A stretch of DNA of 55,171 nucleotides from a bacterium (lineage in GTDB: Bacteria; Babelota; Babeliae; Babelales; Vermiphilaceae), in the NCBI GenBank assembly GCA_030588705.1, contig JAUUXD010000002.1, forward strand, positions 1 to 55,171. Direction: 5' to 3'. The position numbers and the translations under genes are program-made. The notes beneath the pieces were generated by a model, which had not been told where the DNA came from, ran no database searches, and worked only from the letters and a program-made list of their open reading frames with translations. Of the stretch, positions 13,687 to 37,840 are shown in pieces (positions within the stretch are counted from its first letter, which is position 1; the number at the start of each line of letters is the position of its first letter).

Positions 13687-15093
13687 ATGATGATTACCCA
13701 TAAACAGATTATACGAGCCTTCATCATAGCGTGGTGTTGTGCAATCAACATCCCTTTGTTCGGCCTAAGCTCTCTTGCAAAAAATGATCCCTATCCTGTC
13801 TACAATACGCTTGACCCGCATACATTTTTATACACGTATGAAAAGTTGAAAGTTACCGATCCAAAAAGTGCCGAACGCAAACATGACAACGTGGGCCTTT
13901 CTATCGCACCATTCGGGCAAAACGCTGATCGCGGACGTAATCTTAATGGCGTTAAAGTGCCACTCGGTGATCTGACTGGCCGCTGGAGCATGCTTGCCCT
14001 TATGTTTGGGCCAACTCCCACCGGAAAAACAATGGCTCCCACACTACAAACCGCTCTTACTAATCTATTTCCTGGCGTTGCACCCGGCGATCTAAATGAT
14101 GGTTCAAAAATCGATCCTGCTCAAAATTTCGGTTTCTTCTCCGTTCCTCTCAAATATAGAAAGCGAGGGATCCGCTTTGAGCTTGCTGCCGATATTTATG
14201 CCGGCTTTGGGCTCAGCGTTCAAACAGGCATCGTGAGCATGACGCAAACAAGCACCGGATTCCTTGATCAAACAGGATGCGATGATTTTTCCTGCCCATT
14301 TGATCCGGTAACCCCCACCAGAGATGATGTGCGTACCTACCTCATGCATGAATGGAAAACGATCGCCAAAGAGATCCAATTGGATATCGGCTCATTCTGT
14401 GAAACATCAGTGGAAGAAGTGCGAATCAATCTATTCTGGCGACGCGGCTTTGAATTGAATCGTGATGAGGAGGATGAAAGCTGCCACCCACATTTTCTTT
14501 TAATCCCGTTCTTCATGGTGAGCGGCGGAGCATCTCCTGGTGATGAGGATCGAATAGTAGGAGGATTTAATAAAGCGTTCTTTACCCCATTTGGAAATAA
14601 TGATCACAACACCATCGGTTTCACCGCTGGCCTTAATTTCGATTTTGTCGACACGGTTGAAATTGGTGGGGAAGTGGGCGTTACCCACTTTTTCAGCAAA
14701 AATTTTGAGAAGTTCCGCCTGCCAACGAGCGAATGGCAATCAGGCGTCTACCCATTCTTCACCGATGTGCGCGTGAGCCCCGGGTTCAACTGGCATTTTG
14801 GTGCCAAGATCTCCTCCTATCATTTCCTAGAATGCCTATCAGGGTATTTTGAATACATCCAAGTGCGCCACTCACAAGATAAGATTGAATTGAGAAAATG
14901 TGAGGATCAAGGGATATTTTTCCCTAATCAACTTGAGGTACTCACCGGATTTGAGGTGAAGCTCGTCAACGCAGCCCTGAACTACGATATCTCTCCAAAT
15001 ATTAACCTGGGCATCATGGGGCAGATCCCTCTTTCGCAGAAGAATGCCTACCGCAGCTCCACGATCCTCTTTTCCTTTGCCGCCACGTTCTAG
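13687..15093 (+). CDS. Predicted outer-membrane beta-barrel protein
   Basis: N-terminal signal sequence, amphipathic beta-like strands, C-terminal ILFSFAATF. Confidence 0.6.
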   Translation: MMITHKQIIRAFIIAWCCAINIPLFGLSSLAKNDPYPVYNTLDPHTFLYTYEKLKVTDPKSAERKHDNVGLSIAPFGQNADRGRNLNGVKVPLGDLTGRWSMLALMFGPTPTGKTMAPTLQTALTNLFPGVAPGDLNDGSKIDPAQNFGFFSVPLKYRKRGIRFELAADIYAGFGLSVQTGIVSMTQTSTGFLDQTGCDDFSCPFDPVTPTRDDVRTYLMHEWKTIAKEIQLDIGSFCETSVEEVRINLFWRRGFELNRDEEDESCHPHFLLIPFFMVSGGASPGDEDRIVGGFNKAFFTPFGNNDHNTIGFTAGLNFDFVDTVEIGGEVGVTHFFSKNFEKFRLPTSEWQSGVYPFFTDVRVSPGFNWHFGAKISSYHFLECLSGYFEYIQVRHSQDKIELRKCEDQGIFFPNQLEVLTGFEVKLVNAALNYDISPNINLGIMGQIPLSQKNAYRSSTILFSFAATF

Positions 15094-27929: not shown

Positions 27930-30182
27930 TCAGTAGAGATACACGAGGGTGATTGCGGCCAGGCAACCGAATAAAAATGGCCAATACAGAATCTTCTGTA
28001 TCATATTTTTCCGATACCGAATAAACGGTATATCAAAGCCAAGCTGATACAGAAGTGCCACGAGTAAAATTACAATAATCATTATGTACATCATGAAATA
28101 GAAGCTTTCAAAATATACAATCTGGGCTCGTGGAATCTTACCACGGAACCGTACATGGGCAACTACCGTAGCAAAAAACACACTCGCACAGGAACCTATT
28201 ACCGCGTATCCCTGCTGAACACTGGTCAGCAAAATTACAAAGAGAAGGAACGCAATTACCGCAATGGGCAACAGATCGGAAACAACCGTATCAAGCAGCT
28301 GACGCGTAACCAAGAGATCAAAATAAAGCTCTGGTACACCGGATTTATCAACAGAATCATAGACGCCAAATGGCCCGACTTTGTAGTTACCTAAATTACT
28401 CGCGTAGTTCACCGTTTTATACCCAAAATGGGTTGCCACGAGTTTCCAACCAGGCAAATACACATCATTATCAATACCAGGAAGCGACCGTGGATTAATC
28501 AGCTGATACGCATTAAGATCGGGAACAAGTACAATATTTTCTTTGCTATACCGATGCCACAACTGAATATGAATTGCTTTCGTATCAAATGGATATTGAT
28601 CAAATTCTAAGAACTGATTCAATGTGGCATACACTTCCCAAAGAATAACCTCGGATTTCCCCTCTTTTATACGAGACACCTCATTAATAACCACCGTAGA
28701 TGCCTGAGGGAACATCGGACCACGCGGTATTTCATCATGCAAACCATCAGTAAACCGCTGCCAGATATAGGCACTCATTTCAACTTGGCTTGCTGAGACA
28801 AAACGAATATTGTTTATGAAAATACCGGTTGGTATAAAGCGGGCATCATAAAAACCTTTATGCAATGCTTCCTTTGCTTTCTCAAAAAGAGATTCTTCCT
28901 TAGCTTTTGTTACCGCACCCTCTTTATCCTTTTTTTCATGTTTCTCCGACCTGCCCGATACATCAGTAGCAGCTTGATCAACCCGTACGCCATATCGCTG
29001 CCGTGCCGCCTCTTTTTTTAGATAATCAAAGAGTGTCGCTTTATTCTCAACGCGATGAGTTCCCTCATGCTGATAACTCGGATATATCGAGGTTGCATAC
29101 CAGACCCATAAAATTAAACCGGCCAACGCCAACGAAACAGCGAAGGAGGCAGACCACCAGCGAGAAGGGTTTGGCTGTTTGAATACAGAAATAATACATA
29201 CAAGGGACATAATAATGAAAAACACTAATGCCAACATAGGAAGAATAAGATTATGACGCAGCGTGTTGGGCTGCACATCAAGTTCACTCTTATCAAACAC
29301 TCCTACAATGCTCCAACTTGTATCTTCAATCGGTTCTGAAAATAGCCATGAAGGGGCACCGGTAACCTCGTTATCATACTCAAAGAATACCTCTTGTTGT
29401 TTCGCAATTTTTTTACCAACCTTTGCCAATTCCGGATTTTTTAATGTATCAGCAAGCTCAAACACCGAGATCTGTTTGTTGGCAAACTGAGTTTGTGGAT
29501 GGGAAAGGAAAACACCCTTTTTGGTAAGAATAAACCAATACCCGGTTTTTCCCAGAAAGAGCGTATCGAGCACATGTTTTAAATGCTCTATATTCTGGTT
29601 GGCATACACGATACCCGCAGGACGTTTTTTTCCTTCTGCATCGGTATGGTAAAAAGGAACAGCGTATTCCACTAAAATAGTTTTGCTTGCCTGTCCATAA
29701 TAGGGCTCAGCAAATCCAGGCCCCTTTTTAAGAGGATTATTAAACCATTGATGCTCCGGCTTGGTGTAATCATAAACTTTTTCTATATGCACCATCTTCA
29801 CTTCACCCTCTTGCTCCACCATATAGGGGGCATAGAGCTTCGTGTCGGGCCCAAATGCATTCGGTAAAAATGCAACACGGAGTCCCGCAATTTCAGGTGA
29901 TTTGTTTTCACGAAGAAGTGTTTCTATTTCAGCTTTGCTAAGTTTTTTACTACTCAACTCCTTAGCAATGGACTGGGCAAGCGGTTTGAGCATCGTAATA
30001 AAGCCGCTCAGCTCCTTAGCTGCATTTAGCGTATCTTGTCGCGCACTTTCACGCGCTTTATCAAGTAAGCGATCTCGGACCGCAAAAAAATTATACGTAA
30101 GATATATGGTCGCAGCCAAGCCCGCACCCGCTAGCAATAACCATAGGTATGATGTGCGCCTTACTTTAAATATCTTGGTCAT
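27930..30182 (-). CDS. Cache-domain sensor fused to a pentameric ligand-gated ion-channel-like domain
   Basis: N-terminal TM, Cache-like region (KTGYWFILTKKGVFLSHPQ), then GIFINNIRFVSASQVEMSAYIWQRF...FLEFDQYPFDTKAIHIQLWHRYSKENIVLVPD and four C-terminal TM segments. Confidence 0.65.
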   Translation of the reverse strand: MTKIFKVRRTSYLWLLLAGAGLAATIYLTYNFFAVRDRLLDKARESARQDTLNAAKELSGFITMLKPLAQSIAKELSSKKLSKAEIETLLRENKSPEIAGLRVAFLPNAFGPDTKLYAPYMVEQEGEVKMVHIEKVYDYTKPEHQWFNNPLKKGPGFAEPYYGQASKTILVEYAVPFYHTDAEGKKRPAGIVYANQNIEHLKHVLDTLFLGKTGYWFILTKKGVFLSHPQTQFANKQISVFELADTLKNPELAKVGKKIAKQQEVFFEYDNEVTGAPSWLFSEPIEDTSWSIVGVFDKSELDVQPNTLRHNLILPMLALVFFIIMSLVCIISVFKQPNPSRWWSASFAVSLALAGLILWVWYATSIYPSYQHEGTHRVENKATLFDYLKKEAARQRYGVRVDQAATDVSGRSEKHEKKDKEGAVTKAKEESLFEKAKEALHKGFYDARFIPTGIFINNIRFVSASQVEMSAYIWQRFTDGLHDEIPRGPMFPQASTVVINEVSRIKEGKSEVILWEVYATLNQFLEFDQYPFDTKAIHIQLWHRYSKENIVLVPDLNAYQLINPRSLPGIDNDVYLPGWKLVATHFGYKTVNYASNLGNYKVGPFGVYDSVDKSGVPELYFDLLVTRQLLDTVVSDLLPIAVIAFLLFVILLTSVQQGYAVIGSCASVFFATVVAHVRFRGKIPRAQIVYFESFYFMMYIMIIVILLVALLYQLGFDIPFIRYRKNMIQKILYWPFLFGCLAAITLVYLY

Positions 30183-31400: not shown

Positions 31401-32369
31401 CTACCTTAAAAAAAGTAATAAAAACGAAATAAGCACTGCATATATTGCTGAGGTTTCAATCAATCCCTGCGCAAACATGCTCACGCGTGATAAAGCACTG
31501 TATGTTTCAGAATTAGATGCAATCTGTTTACATGCCTCTGTTGCCGTTTTTCCAGAACTAATCCCCGGACCAATAGTGCCAATACCCGTACATAATCCCG
31601 CAGCCAAAAACATAATCCCATCAACAAAATTTTCTGCTCCAAAGGCAGGAACCACGAATAATAAGGAAACCGAAATAATAAGCGCAAAAAGAATCGGCGT
31701 TTCAATAATTGCCTGACTAATTAATGCAAATGAAAACAGCTGTCGGTACGAAAAGCGATTCACCCCCATACCATCGCAGGCTGATTTCGTAAAGAACGCA
31801 AGGCCAATGGCAGGACCAATACTTCCTATTCCAATACAGACACCGCTCGCAATCAACCGTAAACTATCACGCACGGTCTCGATTGATCCCGCTTGTCCAC
31901 GAATAAAGAGGGCAACGATTAATCCAAAAATAATCGGTGTTTGCAATAAGGAAAGCGCAATCAACATAAAACGAACAATCTGTCGCGAAAAAAATGGTTG
32001 ACGCGCAATAGCCAAACATGCTGCTCGAGCCGGGAAGGCAGAGACAATACCTAATACAAACCCAGAAAGACCTACTGAAAAAACAATGCCTAGCTCTGCA
32101 AAGCCGGCAAGAGTACTATTTTGAGCGGTACTATTTGTTTGCAAGAGCAAAAGGAAAGCAATAAACGTGCCCATGAGCGCGGCCGTTTCCATGAGTGCCA
32201 TACCTAAAATAGAAGCACGCGTAATTTCATCGCGAGCAGATGGTTGCAGATCCATTGCCTCGAGAGCACCATGACTCGTTATTCCTTGCCCGATACCAAC
32301 AGCAAGCGCATTCGCCGCAACGGTAACCGCTATCGTGCCGTAATGCATATATTCTGCGAATCCTTCCAC
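31401..32369 (-). CDS. atpE: ATP synthase F0 subunit c with four fused hairpins
   Basis: Four ~80-aa two-helix units with ion-site motifs ALMETAAL, SLLQTPII, AIIETPIL, GLIETSAI; directly downstream of atpB. Confidence 0.85.
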   Translation of the reverse strand: MEGFAEYMHYGTIAVTVAANALAVGIGQGITSHGALEAMDLQPSARDEITRASILGMALMETAALMGTFIAFLLLLQTNSTAQNSTLAGFAELGIVFSVGLSGFVLGIVSAFPARAACLAIARQPFFSRQIVRFMLIALSLLQTPIIFGLIVALFIRGQAGSIETVRDSLRLIASGVCIGIGSIGPAIGLAFFTKSACDGMGVNRFSYRQLFSFALISQAIIETPILFALIISVSLLFVVPAFGAENFVDGIMFLAAGLCTGIGTIGPGISSGKTATEACKQIASNSETYSALSRVSMFAQGLIETSAIYAVLISFLLLFLR

Positions 32370-33101
32370 TTAATCTCCTTCACTTTGTATGGCAAGCGAA
32401 AGGTAGGTCAGTGAGAGCATAGCAAACACAAACGCTTGTAAAAAACCTTCAAAGATAACAAAAAAAGCCGCAAGCAGCAGATTTAAACCGGAGGCCAACC
32501 CAATAAACTCGAACATGAAATTTCCTTGGATCGCCGTAAAGTAAATACTGCTTATAATAGATCCTCCGAAAATATTACCAAAAAGACGAAAGGAGATAGA
32601 GACAACTGTTGCCAATTTTCCAACAACATTGATCGGCATCATAAGAAAGAACGGTGAAAAATACCCCCTAATATACTTCCAAAGCCCTCCCTCCCCAATG
32701 GCAGCAACCTGTGTATATAAAAAAGAGATAATCCCAAGAGCAAGCGTAGTATTCAAATCAATGGTTGGCTCCTCCATCCAAGGAATAATTGATACGAGAT
32801 TGCATGCAAACACAAAACAGAATAAGGAAGTAATAAAAACAAAATGATTGAACGAAAAGATTGATAACGTCTGATCAACCATCCCTACAAATAAGCGAAC
32901 GGCGTACATAGTAACAAATCGTGCCATAGAATCTTTTTTAGAAAGAAGATAGCGACCAAGAAGCAAAATTGCCACGATAATGCCAATCGTAATCCAGGTG
33001 TAGATCACGGTATGTTTATTAATAGAAAAAAACGGATGATTTGATGAAAAAAAAGGGCCAATGAGCCACTGTTCAGTTTCTTCTATGCCAATTCCGCTCA
33101 T
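32370..33101 (-). CDS. atpB: ATP synthase F0 subunit a
   Basis: EPTIDLNTTLALGI, SISFRLFGNIFGGSIIS (essential Arg), IFEGFLQAFVFAMLSLTYLSLA. Confidence 0.92.
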   Translation of the reverse strand: MSGIGIEETEQWLIGPFFSSNHPFFSINKHTVIYTWITIGIIVAILLLGRYLLSKKDSMARFVTMYAVRLFVGMVDQTLSIFSFNHFVFITSLFCFVFACNLVSIIPWMEEPTIDLNTTLALGIISFLYTQVAAIGEGGLWKYIRGYFSPFFLMMPINVVGKLATVVSISFRLFGNIFGGSIISSIYFTAIQGNFMFEFIGLASGLNLLLAAFFVIFEGFLQAFVFAMLSLTYLSLAIQSEGD

Positions 33102-33384
33102 TATGGGAAACCTTTACTCTAAGGATAACCTGCCAAAATAGGGCGATGAACACTACAACGCCCAGTATAGAAGGTATCAACTCAGATCGCAATAGGTACT
33201 TCGCGGTACCAAACAGAATTACAATGCGAGCAATAAAGAAAGAAATCTGCACAAGCCTTCCGCGAAGCGTGTATCCACCACTCACCCAGGACTGTTGCTG
33301 CAAAAGAAACGAGTATCCATACAGCAGTCCAGCAATGGTACATAGAGCGATCGGCGACAAATAGACAATCCAAGAAATAATCAT
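33073..33384 (-). CDS. Small membrane protein upstream of atpB, AtpR/AtpI-like
   Basis: Three TM segments, SFFIARIVILFGTAKYLLR with intramembrane Arg; overlaps the atpB start. Confidence 0.5.
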   Translation of the reverse strand: MIISWIVYLSPIALCTIAGLLYGYSFLLQQQSWVSGGYTLRGRLVQISFFIARIVILFGTAKYLLRSELIPSILGVVVFIALFWQVILRVKVSHNERNWHRRN

Positions 33385-36374: not shown

Positions 36375-37835
36375 TCAACCGCCTTTGATCACCGCAAGCG
36401 GGCGTACACGCGCCACTTTTTTTGCAAGCCCCGCCTCATCAACAATATTCACCACATTATCCACATCTTTATACGCAAGTGGCGCCTCTTCAGCGAGGCC
36501 GGGATCTGAATCAGAACGAATGATAATACCGCGCTCCTCAAGCTGTTTGCGCAGCTCTGAACCACGCACTGTTTTTTTTGCTTGCGATCGGGACATACGA
36601 CGCCCTGCGCCATGGCACGAGCTTCCAAAAGCCACTTCCATACTCTCTTCTGTACCGGTTAAAATATAAGAACTGGTTCCCATGGTCCCCGGAATGAGCA
36701 CCGGCTGTCCGACGTGGCGATACTTCTCCGGCACCTCACGCCGCCCAGGCCCAAAGGCACGCGTGGCACCCTTTCGATGAAGCACAAGCTCATACTCCTT
36801 GCCTTCAATCCTATGCTTTTCAACCTTGCCCAAATTATGAGACACGTCGTACACCATGCGCAATTGAGACGATCCACCCACAATTTCTTGCCACGCTTCG
36901 CGCACCCAATGGCCGATCATATGACGATTTGCCCATGCATAATTTGCTGCTGCAGCCATCGCTTTAAAGTAATCCTGCCCCTCTTGCGAAAGATAGGGAG
37001 CATAAATCAGTTCACGATCAGGAAGGTCATATCCCCATTCGGGAAGTTTGTTCATCATTATTCGCACATAATCAGTACACGTTTGGTGACCAAGACCACG
37101 TGATCCGCAATGGATCATCACCGTTACCAGCCCTTTGTGCAACCCAAACGCTTGCGCCGCCTCTTCGTCATAAATTTCCTCAATGCCCTGCACCTCAAGA
37201 AAATGATTACCCGAACCCAACGTACCGAGCTGATCAGCTCCCCGCTTTTTGGCACGAGGAGAAATAAGCCCCGGATCCGCAACGTCCATGCAGCCGCGCT
37301 CCTCACAGTATTCAATATCTTCTGGCAATCCATATCCGAGTTCAAGCATTCGCTTGGCACCCTTTTGCAAAATTGAATCAAGCTCTCCCGCTTTAAATCT
37401 CAACTTGCCTCCTTTGCCCACACCGGAAGGAATCTTGTTGAATAATCGTGTTGCGAGCTCAGGAAGATAGGGAGCAAGCTCTTCCACCGTCATCGTGGAT
37501 GCCAAAAGACGCACGCCACAATTTATATCGTACCCAATGCCTCCTGGCGAAATCACGCCTCCATCATGAATATCCATTGCAGCCACTCCCCCAATAGGAA
37601 ATCCATAGCCCTGATGAATATCAGGCATGGCGAATGCTGCCTTTTTAATACCGGGAAGCGTGGCAACATTCGCGAGCTGCCACAACGATTTATCACCAAT
37701 TACATCCTCCATCATCGCCTCATTCATGAATATTTGTGCAGGAACTCTCATATCCGCACGATGTCCTTTAGGGATCTCGTAGAGCACGTCGCTTATTTTT
37801 TTAAGATCAGCCCGTTTAATCTCTTCCATCGTCAT
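36375..37835 (-). CDS. rtcB: RNA-splicing ligase
   Basis: AFAMPDIHQGYGFPIGGVAAMD, GGIGYDINCGVRLL, LGTLGSGNHFLEVQ, MIHCGSRGLGHQ, GSSCHGAGRRMSRSQAKK. Confidence 0.96.
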   Translation of the reverse strand: MTMEEIKRADLKKISDVLYEIPKGHRADMRVPAQIFMNEAMMEDVIGDKSLWQLANVATLPGIKKAAFAMPDIHQGYGFPIGGVAAMDIHDGGVISPGGIGYDINCGVRLLASTMTVEELAPYLPELATRLFNKIPSGVGKGGKLRFKAGELDSILQKGAKRMLELGYGLPEDIEYCEERGCMDVADPGLISPRAKKRGADQLGTLGSGNHFLEVQGIEEIYDEEAAQAFGLHKGLVTVMIHCGSRGLGHQTCTDYVRIMMNKLPEWGYDLPDRELIYAPYLSQEGQDYFKAMAAAANYAWANRHMIGHWVREAWQEIVGGSSQLRMVYDVSHNLGKVEKHRIEGKEYELVLHRKGATRAFGPGRREVPEKYRHVGQPVLIPGTMGTSSYILTGTEESMEVAFGSSCHGAGRRMSRSQAKKTVRGSELRKQLEERGIIIRSDSDPGLAEEAPLAYKDVDNVVNIVDEAGLAKKVARVRPLAVIKGG

Positions 37836-37840
37836 CCTTA

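What the first reader, a model, noticed from the sequence alone, without database searches (positions are those of the whole stretch)
31401..32369. Tetra-hairpin ATP synthase c subunit with one inactivated ion site
Four c-type hairpins are fused in a single 322-aa protein. The ion-binding Glu is present in hairpins 1, 3 and 4 (METAA, IETPI, IETSA) but is Gln in hairpin 2 (LLQTPII, codon CAA at 31941-31943). Hairpin 2 nonetheless keeps the RQP-type loop (AIARQP). Fused and site-deficient rotor subunits are known in V/A-type and some anaerobe ATPases. A 3-of-4 ring in an F-type context would lower the ion/ATP ratio, favouring ATP-driven pumping, which fits an energy-parasitic lifestyle (inference).
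Basis: partly seen in the sequence, partly recalled or inferred. Interest (0 to 1): 0.85.

Follow-up and report, generated by a model that had tools for sequence, protein, structure and literature searches.

The report
Four-hairpin subunit of hybrid ATPase rotor
A phylum of bacteria that live inside protists (Dependentiae) carries, beside its normal rotor protein, an ancient fused rotor protein made of four copies, so its ATP-driven ion pump probably turns on a mixed, lopsided ring that in most families has one ion site switched off.

Summary
An uninterrupted 322-aa ORF on the minus strand (GTG start, directly after atpB) holds four PF00137 hairpins with E61, Q143, E223 and E305. It is no artefact: 106 of 107 atpB loci of the same order (Dependentiae/Babeliales; the exception ends at a contig edge) have a four-hairpin c gene directly after atpB, including the complete PacBio genome of isolate Noda2021.

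This genome also has a canonical single-hairpin atpE, heading atpF-F'-H-A on another contig, but only one a, alpha, beta and gamma gene. 104 of 113 genomes (77 of 78 near-complete) have both c genes. Best explanation: a hybrid c-ring of single-hairpin c plus four-hairpin c, the Acetobacterium woodii principle. A. woodii c1 (4bem_J) is the closest solved relative by sequence and fold. Elsewhere in bacteria, 2-4-hairpin fused c genes sit between atpB and atpE.

Hairpin 2 is Q in 67, E in 29 and M/V/G in 10 genomes, split by one deep branch. "3 of 4" is therefore a clade trait, and the whole-ring ratio is unknown. Short epsilon, ATP/ADP translocases and no detected heme-copper oxidase or complex-I-type subunits fit ATP-driven pumping. 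Physical co-assembly is inferred, not shown.

The parts
31401..32369 (-). Four-hairpin c-type rotor subunit, 322 aa, GTG start, directly downstream of atpB
   Evidence: ORF; four PF00137 matches; AF2 pLDDT 94.4; best PDB relative 4bem_J by sequence and fold
32136..32348 (-). Hairpin 1 (residues 8-78): E61-T62, GQG at residues 27-29, loop LQP
   Evidence: E/D in 106 of 106 relatives
31890..32108 (-). Hairpin 2 (residues 88-160): Q143-T144-P145 at the ion site, RQP loop kept
   Evidence: RQP in 94 of 106, site Q67/E29/M7/V2/G1
31941..31943 (-). Codon CAA = Gln143, at the place of the ion-binding Glu
31995..32003 (-). R123-Q124-P125 polar loop of hairpin 2
31650..31871 (-). Hairpin 3 (residues 167-240): E223-T224-P225, loop VNR
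   Evidence: E in 101 of 106
31404..31628 (-). Hairpin 4 (residues 248-322): E305-T306, Y310 kept
   Evidence: D/E in 105 of 106, Y in 101 of 106
32370..33101 (-). atpB, F-type subunit a, the only copy found in the genome
   Evidence: PF00119 E=3.8e-34; single match in own genome
33073..33384 (-). 103-aa small membrane protein, probably AtpI/AtpR-like; homologues upstream of atpB in relatives
   Evidence: phmmer homologues upstream of atpB; relatives weakly match ATP-synt_I (E 0.0028 and 0.044) and AtpR (E 0.11), below cut-offs

Best explanation
The protein is a four-hairpin, c1-like rotor subunit of a hybrid (heteromeric) F-type c-ring. The ring is assembled from canonical single-hairpin c subunits (gene on contig C7) plus one or a few copies of this tetra-hairpin subunit, against the genome's only a subunit and only F1. 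Hairpins 1, 3 and 4 carry ion-binding carboxylates. Hairpin 2 in the clade of this window has lost it (E-to-Q) but keeps the RQP loop that in other F-type enzymes contacts the central stalk, so the ring would have slightly fewer ion sites than hairpins. In this ATP-importing intracellular bacterium the enzyme probably runs mainly as an ATP-driven ion pump. Shown here: the gene, its conservation, the coexistence with atpE, the single copies of a/alpha/beta/gamma, the residues. Inferred: physical co-assembly in one ring, stoichiometry, direction of work, coupling ion.
For: One a (107 of 113 order genomes have atpB, essentially one each, two of them with an extra partial fragment), one alpha and one beta, one gamma, but two c-type genes. 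Both c genes occur in 104 of 113 genomes and in 77 of 78 that are at least 90% complete. The tetra gene directly follows atpB in 106 of 107 loci. Carboxylates are kept in hairpin 1 (106/106), 3 (101/106) and 4 (105/106). Each hairpin forms its own clade across the order, so the fused gene is ancient and did not homogenise. Closest solved relative is A. woodii c1, by sequence (4bem_J, E=3.7e-20) and fold (rank 1); it too has Q in its last hairpin, and PMC7911925 describes C. aceticum c1/c2 with the same logic (Q....QT in hairpin 2) and cites the A. woodii mixed oligomer. In at least 12 unrelated bacterial loci a 2-4-hairpin fused c lies between atpB and a single-hairpin atpE in the same operon. 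Hydrolysis direction: short epsilon, ATP/ADP translocases, no PF00361 or PF00115.
Against: No biochemistry or structure of any Dependentiae F-ATPase. The two c genes are unlinked here. Co-assembly could not be modelled (single-chain prediction only). In Bacillus PS3 a single E56Q in a fused c10 ring abolished ATP synthesis (PMC8809890), so a dead hairpin is not harmless in an ordinary ring. No single-hairpin atpE was found in G057, G072, G086 and G093, probably assembly gaps (only G072 is over 90% complete).
Confidence: 0.72

Rival explanations
1. Homomeric tetra ring: the ring is built only of four-hairpin subunits, 3 of 4 sites active, and the single-hairpin c has another or minor role.
For: The tetra gene sits beside atpB at the place where atpE usually lies; fused-only rotors exist in A/V-type enzymes (M. 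jannaschii, M. kandleri; PMC2359735).
Against: The canonical atpE keeps the Glu (107 E and 1 D of 108) and heads the b/delta/alpha operon; it is nearly universal in the order. In other bacteria both genes lie in one operon.
Confidence: 0.08
2. Two alternative rings: a c-only ring and a tetra-containing or tetra-only ring that share the same a, b and F1 and are exchanged by condition or host stage.
For: Two unlinked loci (C62 and C7) could be regulated apart.
Against: Only one a and one F1; no regulatory data; same-operon arrangement elsewhere favours joint assembly.
Confidence: 0.12
3. The tetra protein is not a ring member but a c-derived assembly factor, plug or regulator of subunit a or the ring.
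For: Co-transcribed position with atpB; hairpins 1 and 2 lack the Pro28 of the others and the GxGxG packing motif of hairpin 1 is weak; long branches.
Against: Ion-site carboxylates are near-invariant in three hairpins over more than 100 genomes, which a non-translocating factor would not need; the fold matches ring subunits.
Confidence: 0.08

Closest known systems
Acetobacterium woodii F/V-hybrid rotor, subunit c1 (PDB 4bem chain J), and Clostridium aceticum c1/c2
   Same: Fused c beside a canonical single-hairpin c in an F-type enzyme; E-to-Q in one hairpin with the following Thr kept (QT); fused gene just before the single-c gene near atpB in C. aceticum. Best hit by sequence and fold.
   Different: Two hairpins against four; one of two sites against three (or four) of four; here the genes are unlinked and the fused protein is conserved over a whole phylum-level lineage.
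Enterococcus hirae NtpK / eukaryotic V-ATPase c (2bl2, 6o7u)
   Same: Fused hairpins with fewer carboxylates than hairpins; same fold.
   Different: V-type rings without single-hairpin F-type c; here F1 alpha and beta match atpA/atpD above the curated cut-offs.
Methanogen A-type c (M. jannaschii three, M. kandleri 13 hairpins; PMC2359735)
   Same: More than two hairpins in one chain.
   Different: Archaeal A-type; in M. kandleri every hairpin keeps the full ligand set.
Unnamed bacterial fused c genes found here (L304-L319)
   Same: 2-4 hairpins between atpB and atpE; middle hairpins with QTP or STP, as Dependentiae hairpin 2.
   Different: They have lost most carboxylates (often only hairpin 1 keeps Glu, in some none), whereas Dependentiae keep three or four.

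Membership tests
ATP synthase c subunit (PF00137) | TM1-loop-TM2 hairpin with match over the curated cut-off | tested here: met
   Four matches over cut-off; AF2 model
F/V-type hybrid rotor (A. woodii kind) | Fused multi-hairpin c gene plus a canonical single-hairpin c gene in the same genome | tested here: met
   104 of 113 genomes
F/V-type hybrid rotor (A. woodii kind) | One set of a and F1 subunits serving both c proteins | tested here: met
F/V-type hybrid rotor (A. woodii kind) | At least one fused hairpin without the carboxylate | tested here: met
   Q143; not met in 25 EEEE genomes of the sister clade
F/V-type hybrid rotor (A. woodii kind) | Fused and single c genes in one operon | tested here: not met
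   Unlinked here (C62 and C7); in single-contig G023 they lie about 700 kb apart by coordinate. Met in unrelated bacteria
F/V-type hybrid rotor (A. woodii kind) | Both proteins in one physical ring | not testable with these tools
   Needs biochemistry or multimer modelling
V-type ATPase K subunit | V-type catalytic partners / V-type K model over cut-off | tested here: not met
   NF004913 53.5 bits against cut-off 211; atpA 646 and atpD 756 bits over cut-off
N-ATPase (alternate F1F0) | alt_F1F0 models over cut-off | tested here: not met
   TIGR03322, 03306, 03324, 03305 all below cut-off

The most novel reading that the evidence does not exclude
The four hairpins are specialised parts of a deliberately asymmetric rotor. 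Hairpin 2, which alone keeps a strict RQP loop (94 of 106; the single c's have KYP or KKP instead), is the docking site of the gamma/epsilon foot and can give up ion binding, while hairpins 1, 3 and 4 carry ions. The ring would have a built-in register for the central stalk, and the Q/E state of hairpin 2 would set a dead step in each turn.
Probability: 0.22. Interest if true: 0.82.

Novelty: new variant of a known kind. Interest (0 to 1): 0.62.

Why it matters
Hybrid F-type rotors are characterised in a few acetogens with a two-hairpin c1. Here a four-hairpin form is ancient, nearly universal in a phylum of obligate intracellular bacteria, and keeps three or four active sites with hairpin-specific signatures. 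It makes testable how many dead sites a ring tolerates and where, and whether a symmetric ring needs symmetry breaking. Two natural clades (hairpin 2 Q against E) offer a ready comparison of ion/ATP ratio in energy parasites. The wider set of 2-4-hairpin fused c genes between atpB and atpE suggests that hybrid rotors are much commoner than the described cases.

Tried and rejected
Assembly or frameshift artefact: rejected by 106 uninterrupted orthologues and a complete PacBio genome. Decay of hairpin 2: rejected as the reading, because hairpin 2 is as conserved as the others (mean pairwise identity 0.42 against 0.34, 0.47, 0.37) and Q143 is invariant in the 31-sequence alignment A3. Covariation between hairpin 2 (T or A after the site) and hairpin 3 position 32 (L or Q), 71/26/7/2, looks like a shared site across the interface but rests on one deep split; the independent-pairs test has too few pairs, so it is not used as evidence. 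Origin of the tetra gene and direction of the change in hairpin 2: the best tree puts hairpin 2 with inactive middle hairpins of other bacteria, which would make Q ancestral and E regained, but the AU test does not reject one Dependentiae clade (p 0.23 and 0.27), so this is left open. Na+ or H+: single c's mostly carry Q32-E65-S/T66, the Na+ criterion of PMC2359735, but hairpins 3 and 4 lack Q32 in this clade, so the ion is not assigned. Independent search of the literature found no description of this protein in Dependentiae; McLean 2013 and Matthies 2014 are not held. A profile of 42 diverse sequences could not be used for the GTDB scan, so the named-genome scan used a family-level profile and under-samples distant relatives.

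Full report
What is there. The frame 32369-31401 on the minus strand encodes 322 aa, starts with GTG directly after the atpB stop and is uninterrupted. Pfam finds only ATP-synt_C, four times. AlphaFold2 with 31 natural sequences gives four hairpins at pLDDT 94.4 and pTM 0.92.

It is ancient and general in its lineage. The genome (869,502 bp, 65 contigs, 96% complete) belongs with Candidatus Dependentiae/Babeliales: nearly all named relatives in a GTDB scan are Dependentiae, Babeliales or TM6 records, including the complete genome AP025250.1 of isolate Noda2021 (PMC8812299). In the order, 107 atpB loci were read: 106 have a 313-352 aa four-hairpin ORF directly downstream and the last ends at a contig edge. 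A tetra gene was seen in 108 of 113 genomes, the five without it being 53-78% complete. A hairpin tree makes hairpins 1, 2 and 3 single-origin groups with support 98-100, hairpin 4 a group with weaker support in the first tree (43) and 94/91 in the second: the fusion predates the families and the hairpins have kept their identities.

It is not the only c subunit. The genome has an 85-aa single-hairpin c with GQG and VETEAIY on contig C7, followed by genes for b, b', delta and alpha. C7 begins 182 bp upstream of it. Single-hairpin c genes were found in 108 of 113 genomes; 104 have both c genes, and of 78 genomes at least 90% complete only G072 lacks a detected single c (counted from those tables). 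Yet there is one atpB per genome, one alpha and one beta (the third PF00006 match scoring far lower and presumably Rho), and one gamma. One a and one F1 with two c proteins is the genetic pattern of a hybrid rotor.

Relatives point the same way. The closest solved protein by sequence is A. woodii c1, 4bem_J (E=3.7e-20), and Foldseek ranks it first, then E. hirae NtpK. A. woodii c1 has Glu in hairpin 1 and Gln (AQTT) in hairpin 2 (alignment). In C. aceticum, c1 and c2 are encoded side by side, the second c1 hairpin having Q....QT without the carboxylate, and the paper relates this to a reduced Na+/ATP stoichiometry (PMC7911925). A profile search of 388 genomes found further fused c genes outside the order. 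In the loci read, genes of 2, 3 or 4 hairpins follow atpB and precede a single-hairpin atpE and the F1 genes (L304-L309, L311-L317, L319). Their first hairpin usually keeps Glu, the middle ones have QTP, STP or similar, the last QST with Tyr. Dependentiae differ by keeping carboxylates in three or four hairpins.

The state of hairpin 2. Over 106 sequences: Q 67, E 29, M 7, V 2, G 1; hairpin 1 E/D 106, hairpin 3 E 101, hairpin 4 D 61 and E 44. On a tree of a plus tetra, without the site columns, one group of families (f5, f8, f11, f15, f16, f18, f20 and f12) is E except one G, and the rest is Q/M/V except one E: three changes, against 25.6 in shuffles. So the missing carboxylate is an old clade trait, neither a quirk of this genome nor universal. 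Which state is ancestral is open. Hairpin 2 is not decaying: its loop is RQP in 94 of 106, in both clades, while single c's have KYP, KKP and the like and hairpins 3 and 4 have other loops. That the loop contacts gamma/epsilon is established for E. coli-type enzymes (own knowledge); that hairpin 2 is a docking hairpin here is a hypothesis.

How it probably works. Steps shown: gene content, conservation, residues, fold of the single chain. Steps inferred: tetra and single c form one ring; ions are carried by single c and by hairpins 1, 3 and 4; hairpin 2 makes one site fewer per tetra unit. The direction is likely ATP-driven: three ATP/ADP translocase genes (four matches, two in one frame; B. 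massiliensis is also reported to have three, PMC4378268), an 82-aa epsilon without the C-terminal domain that restrains hydrolysis in other bacteria, and no complex-I antiporter-type or heme-copper oxidase match while controls rang. A caution is that one E56Q in a fused PS3 c10 ring stopped ATP synthesis (PMC8809890), so a hybrid ring must be built to pass the dead hairpin, or must work only as a pump.

Verdict.

Noticed in passing
L304-L309, L311-L317, L319 (G212, G293, G208, G195, G258, G349, G220, G342, G228, G366, G246, G236, G374, G358): Outside the order, fused c genes of 2-4 hairpins lie between atpB and single-hairpin atpE. Most have lost carboxylates; L304 (all four) and L319 (all three) have none left. 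Taxa unnamed in this data set.
   Followed up: partly
window 33073-33384 (-): 103-aa small membrane protein overlapping the atpB start, with homologues upstream of atpB in relatives; no Pfam or NCBIfam match over cut-off, weak AtpI/AtpR similarity in some relatives. Probably an assembly factor family not covered by models.
   Followed up: partly
G000 contig C30:3094-3339 (L147) and 103 of 113 order genomes: F1 epsilon is short, mostly 80-90 aa, i.e. without the C-terminal domain.
   Followed up: partly
G000 contigs C7, C30, C38, C62: The F-ATPase genes are scattered over at least four places: a + tetra c; c-b-b'-delta-alpha; beta-epsilon; gamma.
   Followed up: yes
window 27930-30182 (-): 750-aa membrane protein with an N-terminal Cache sensor domain and a C-terminal half without any Pfam match, containing a FDQYPFDTK stretch that recalls pentameric ligand-gated channels (impression only).
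   Followed up: no
window 36375-38284 (-): RtcB RNA ligase gene (Pfam) next to a 147-aa gene that looks like archease (not tested).
   Followed up: no
window 13687-15093 (+): 468-aa ORF without any Pfam match at E 0.001.
   Followed up: no
L264 (JAIYDZ010000006.1): Record titled Proteobacteria bacterium carries the atpB-tetra locus; probably a mislabelled Dependentiae MAG.
   Followed up: no
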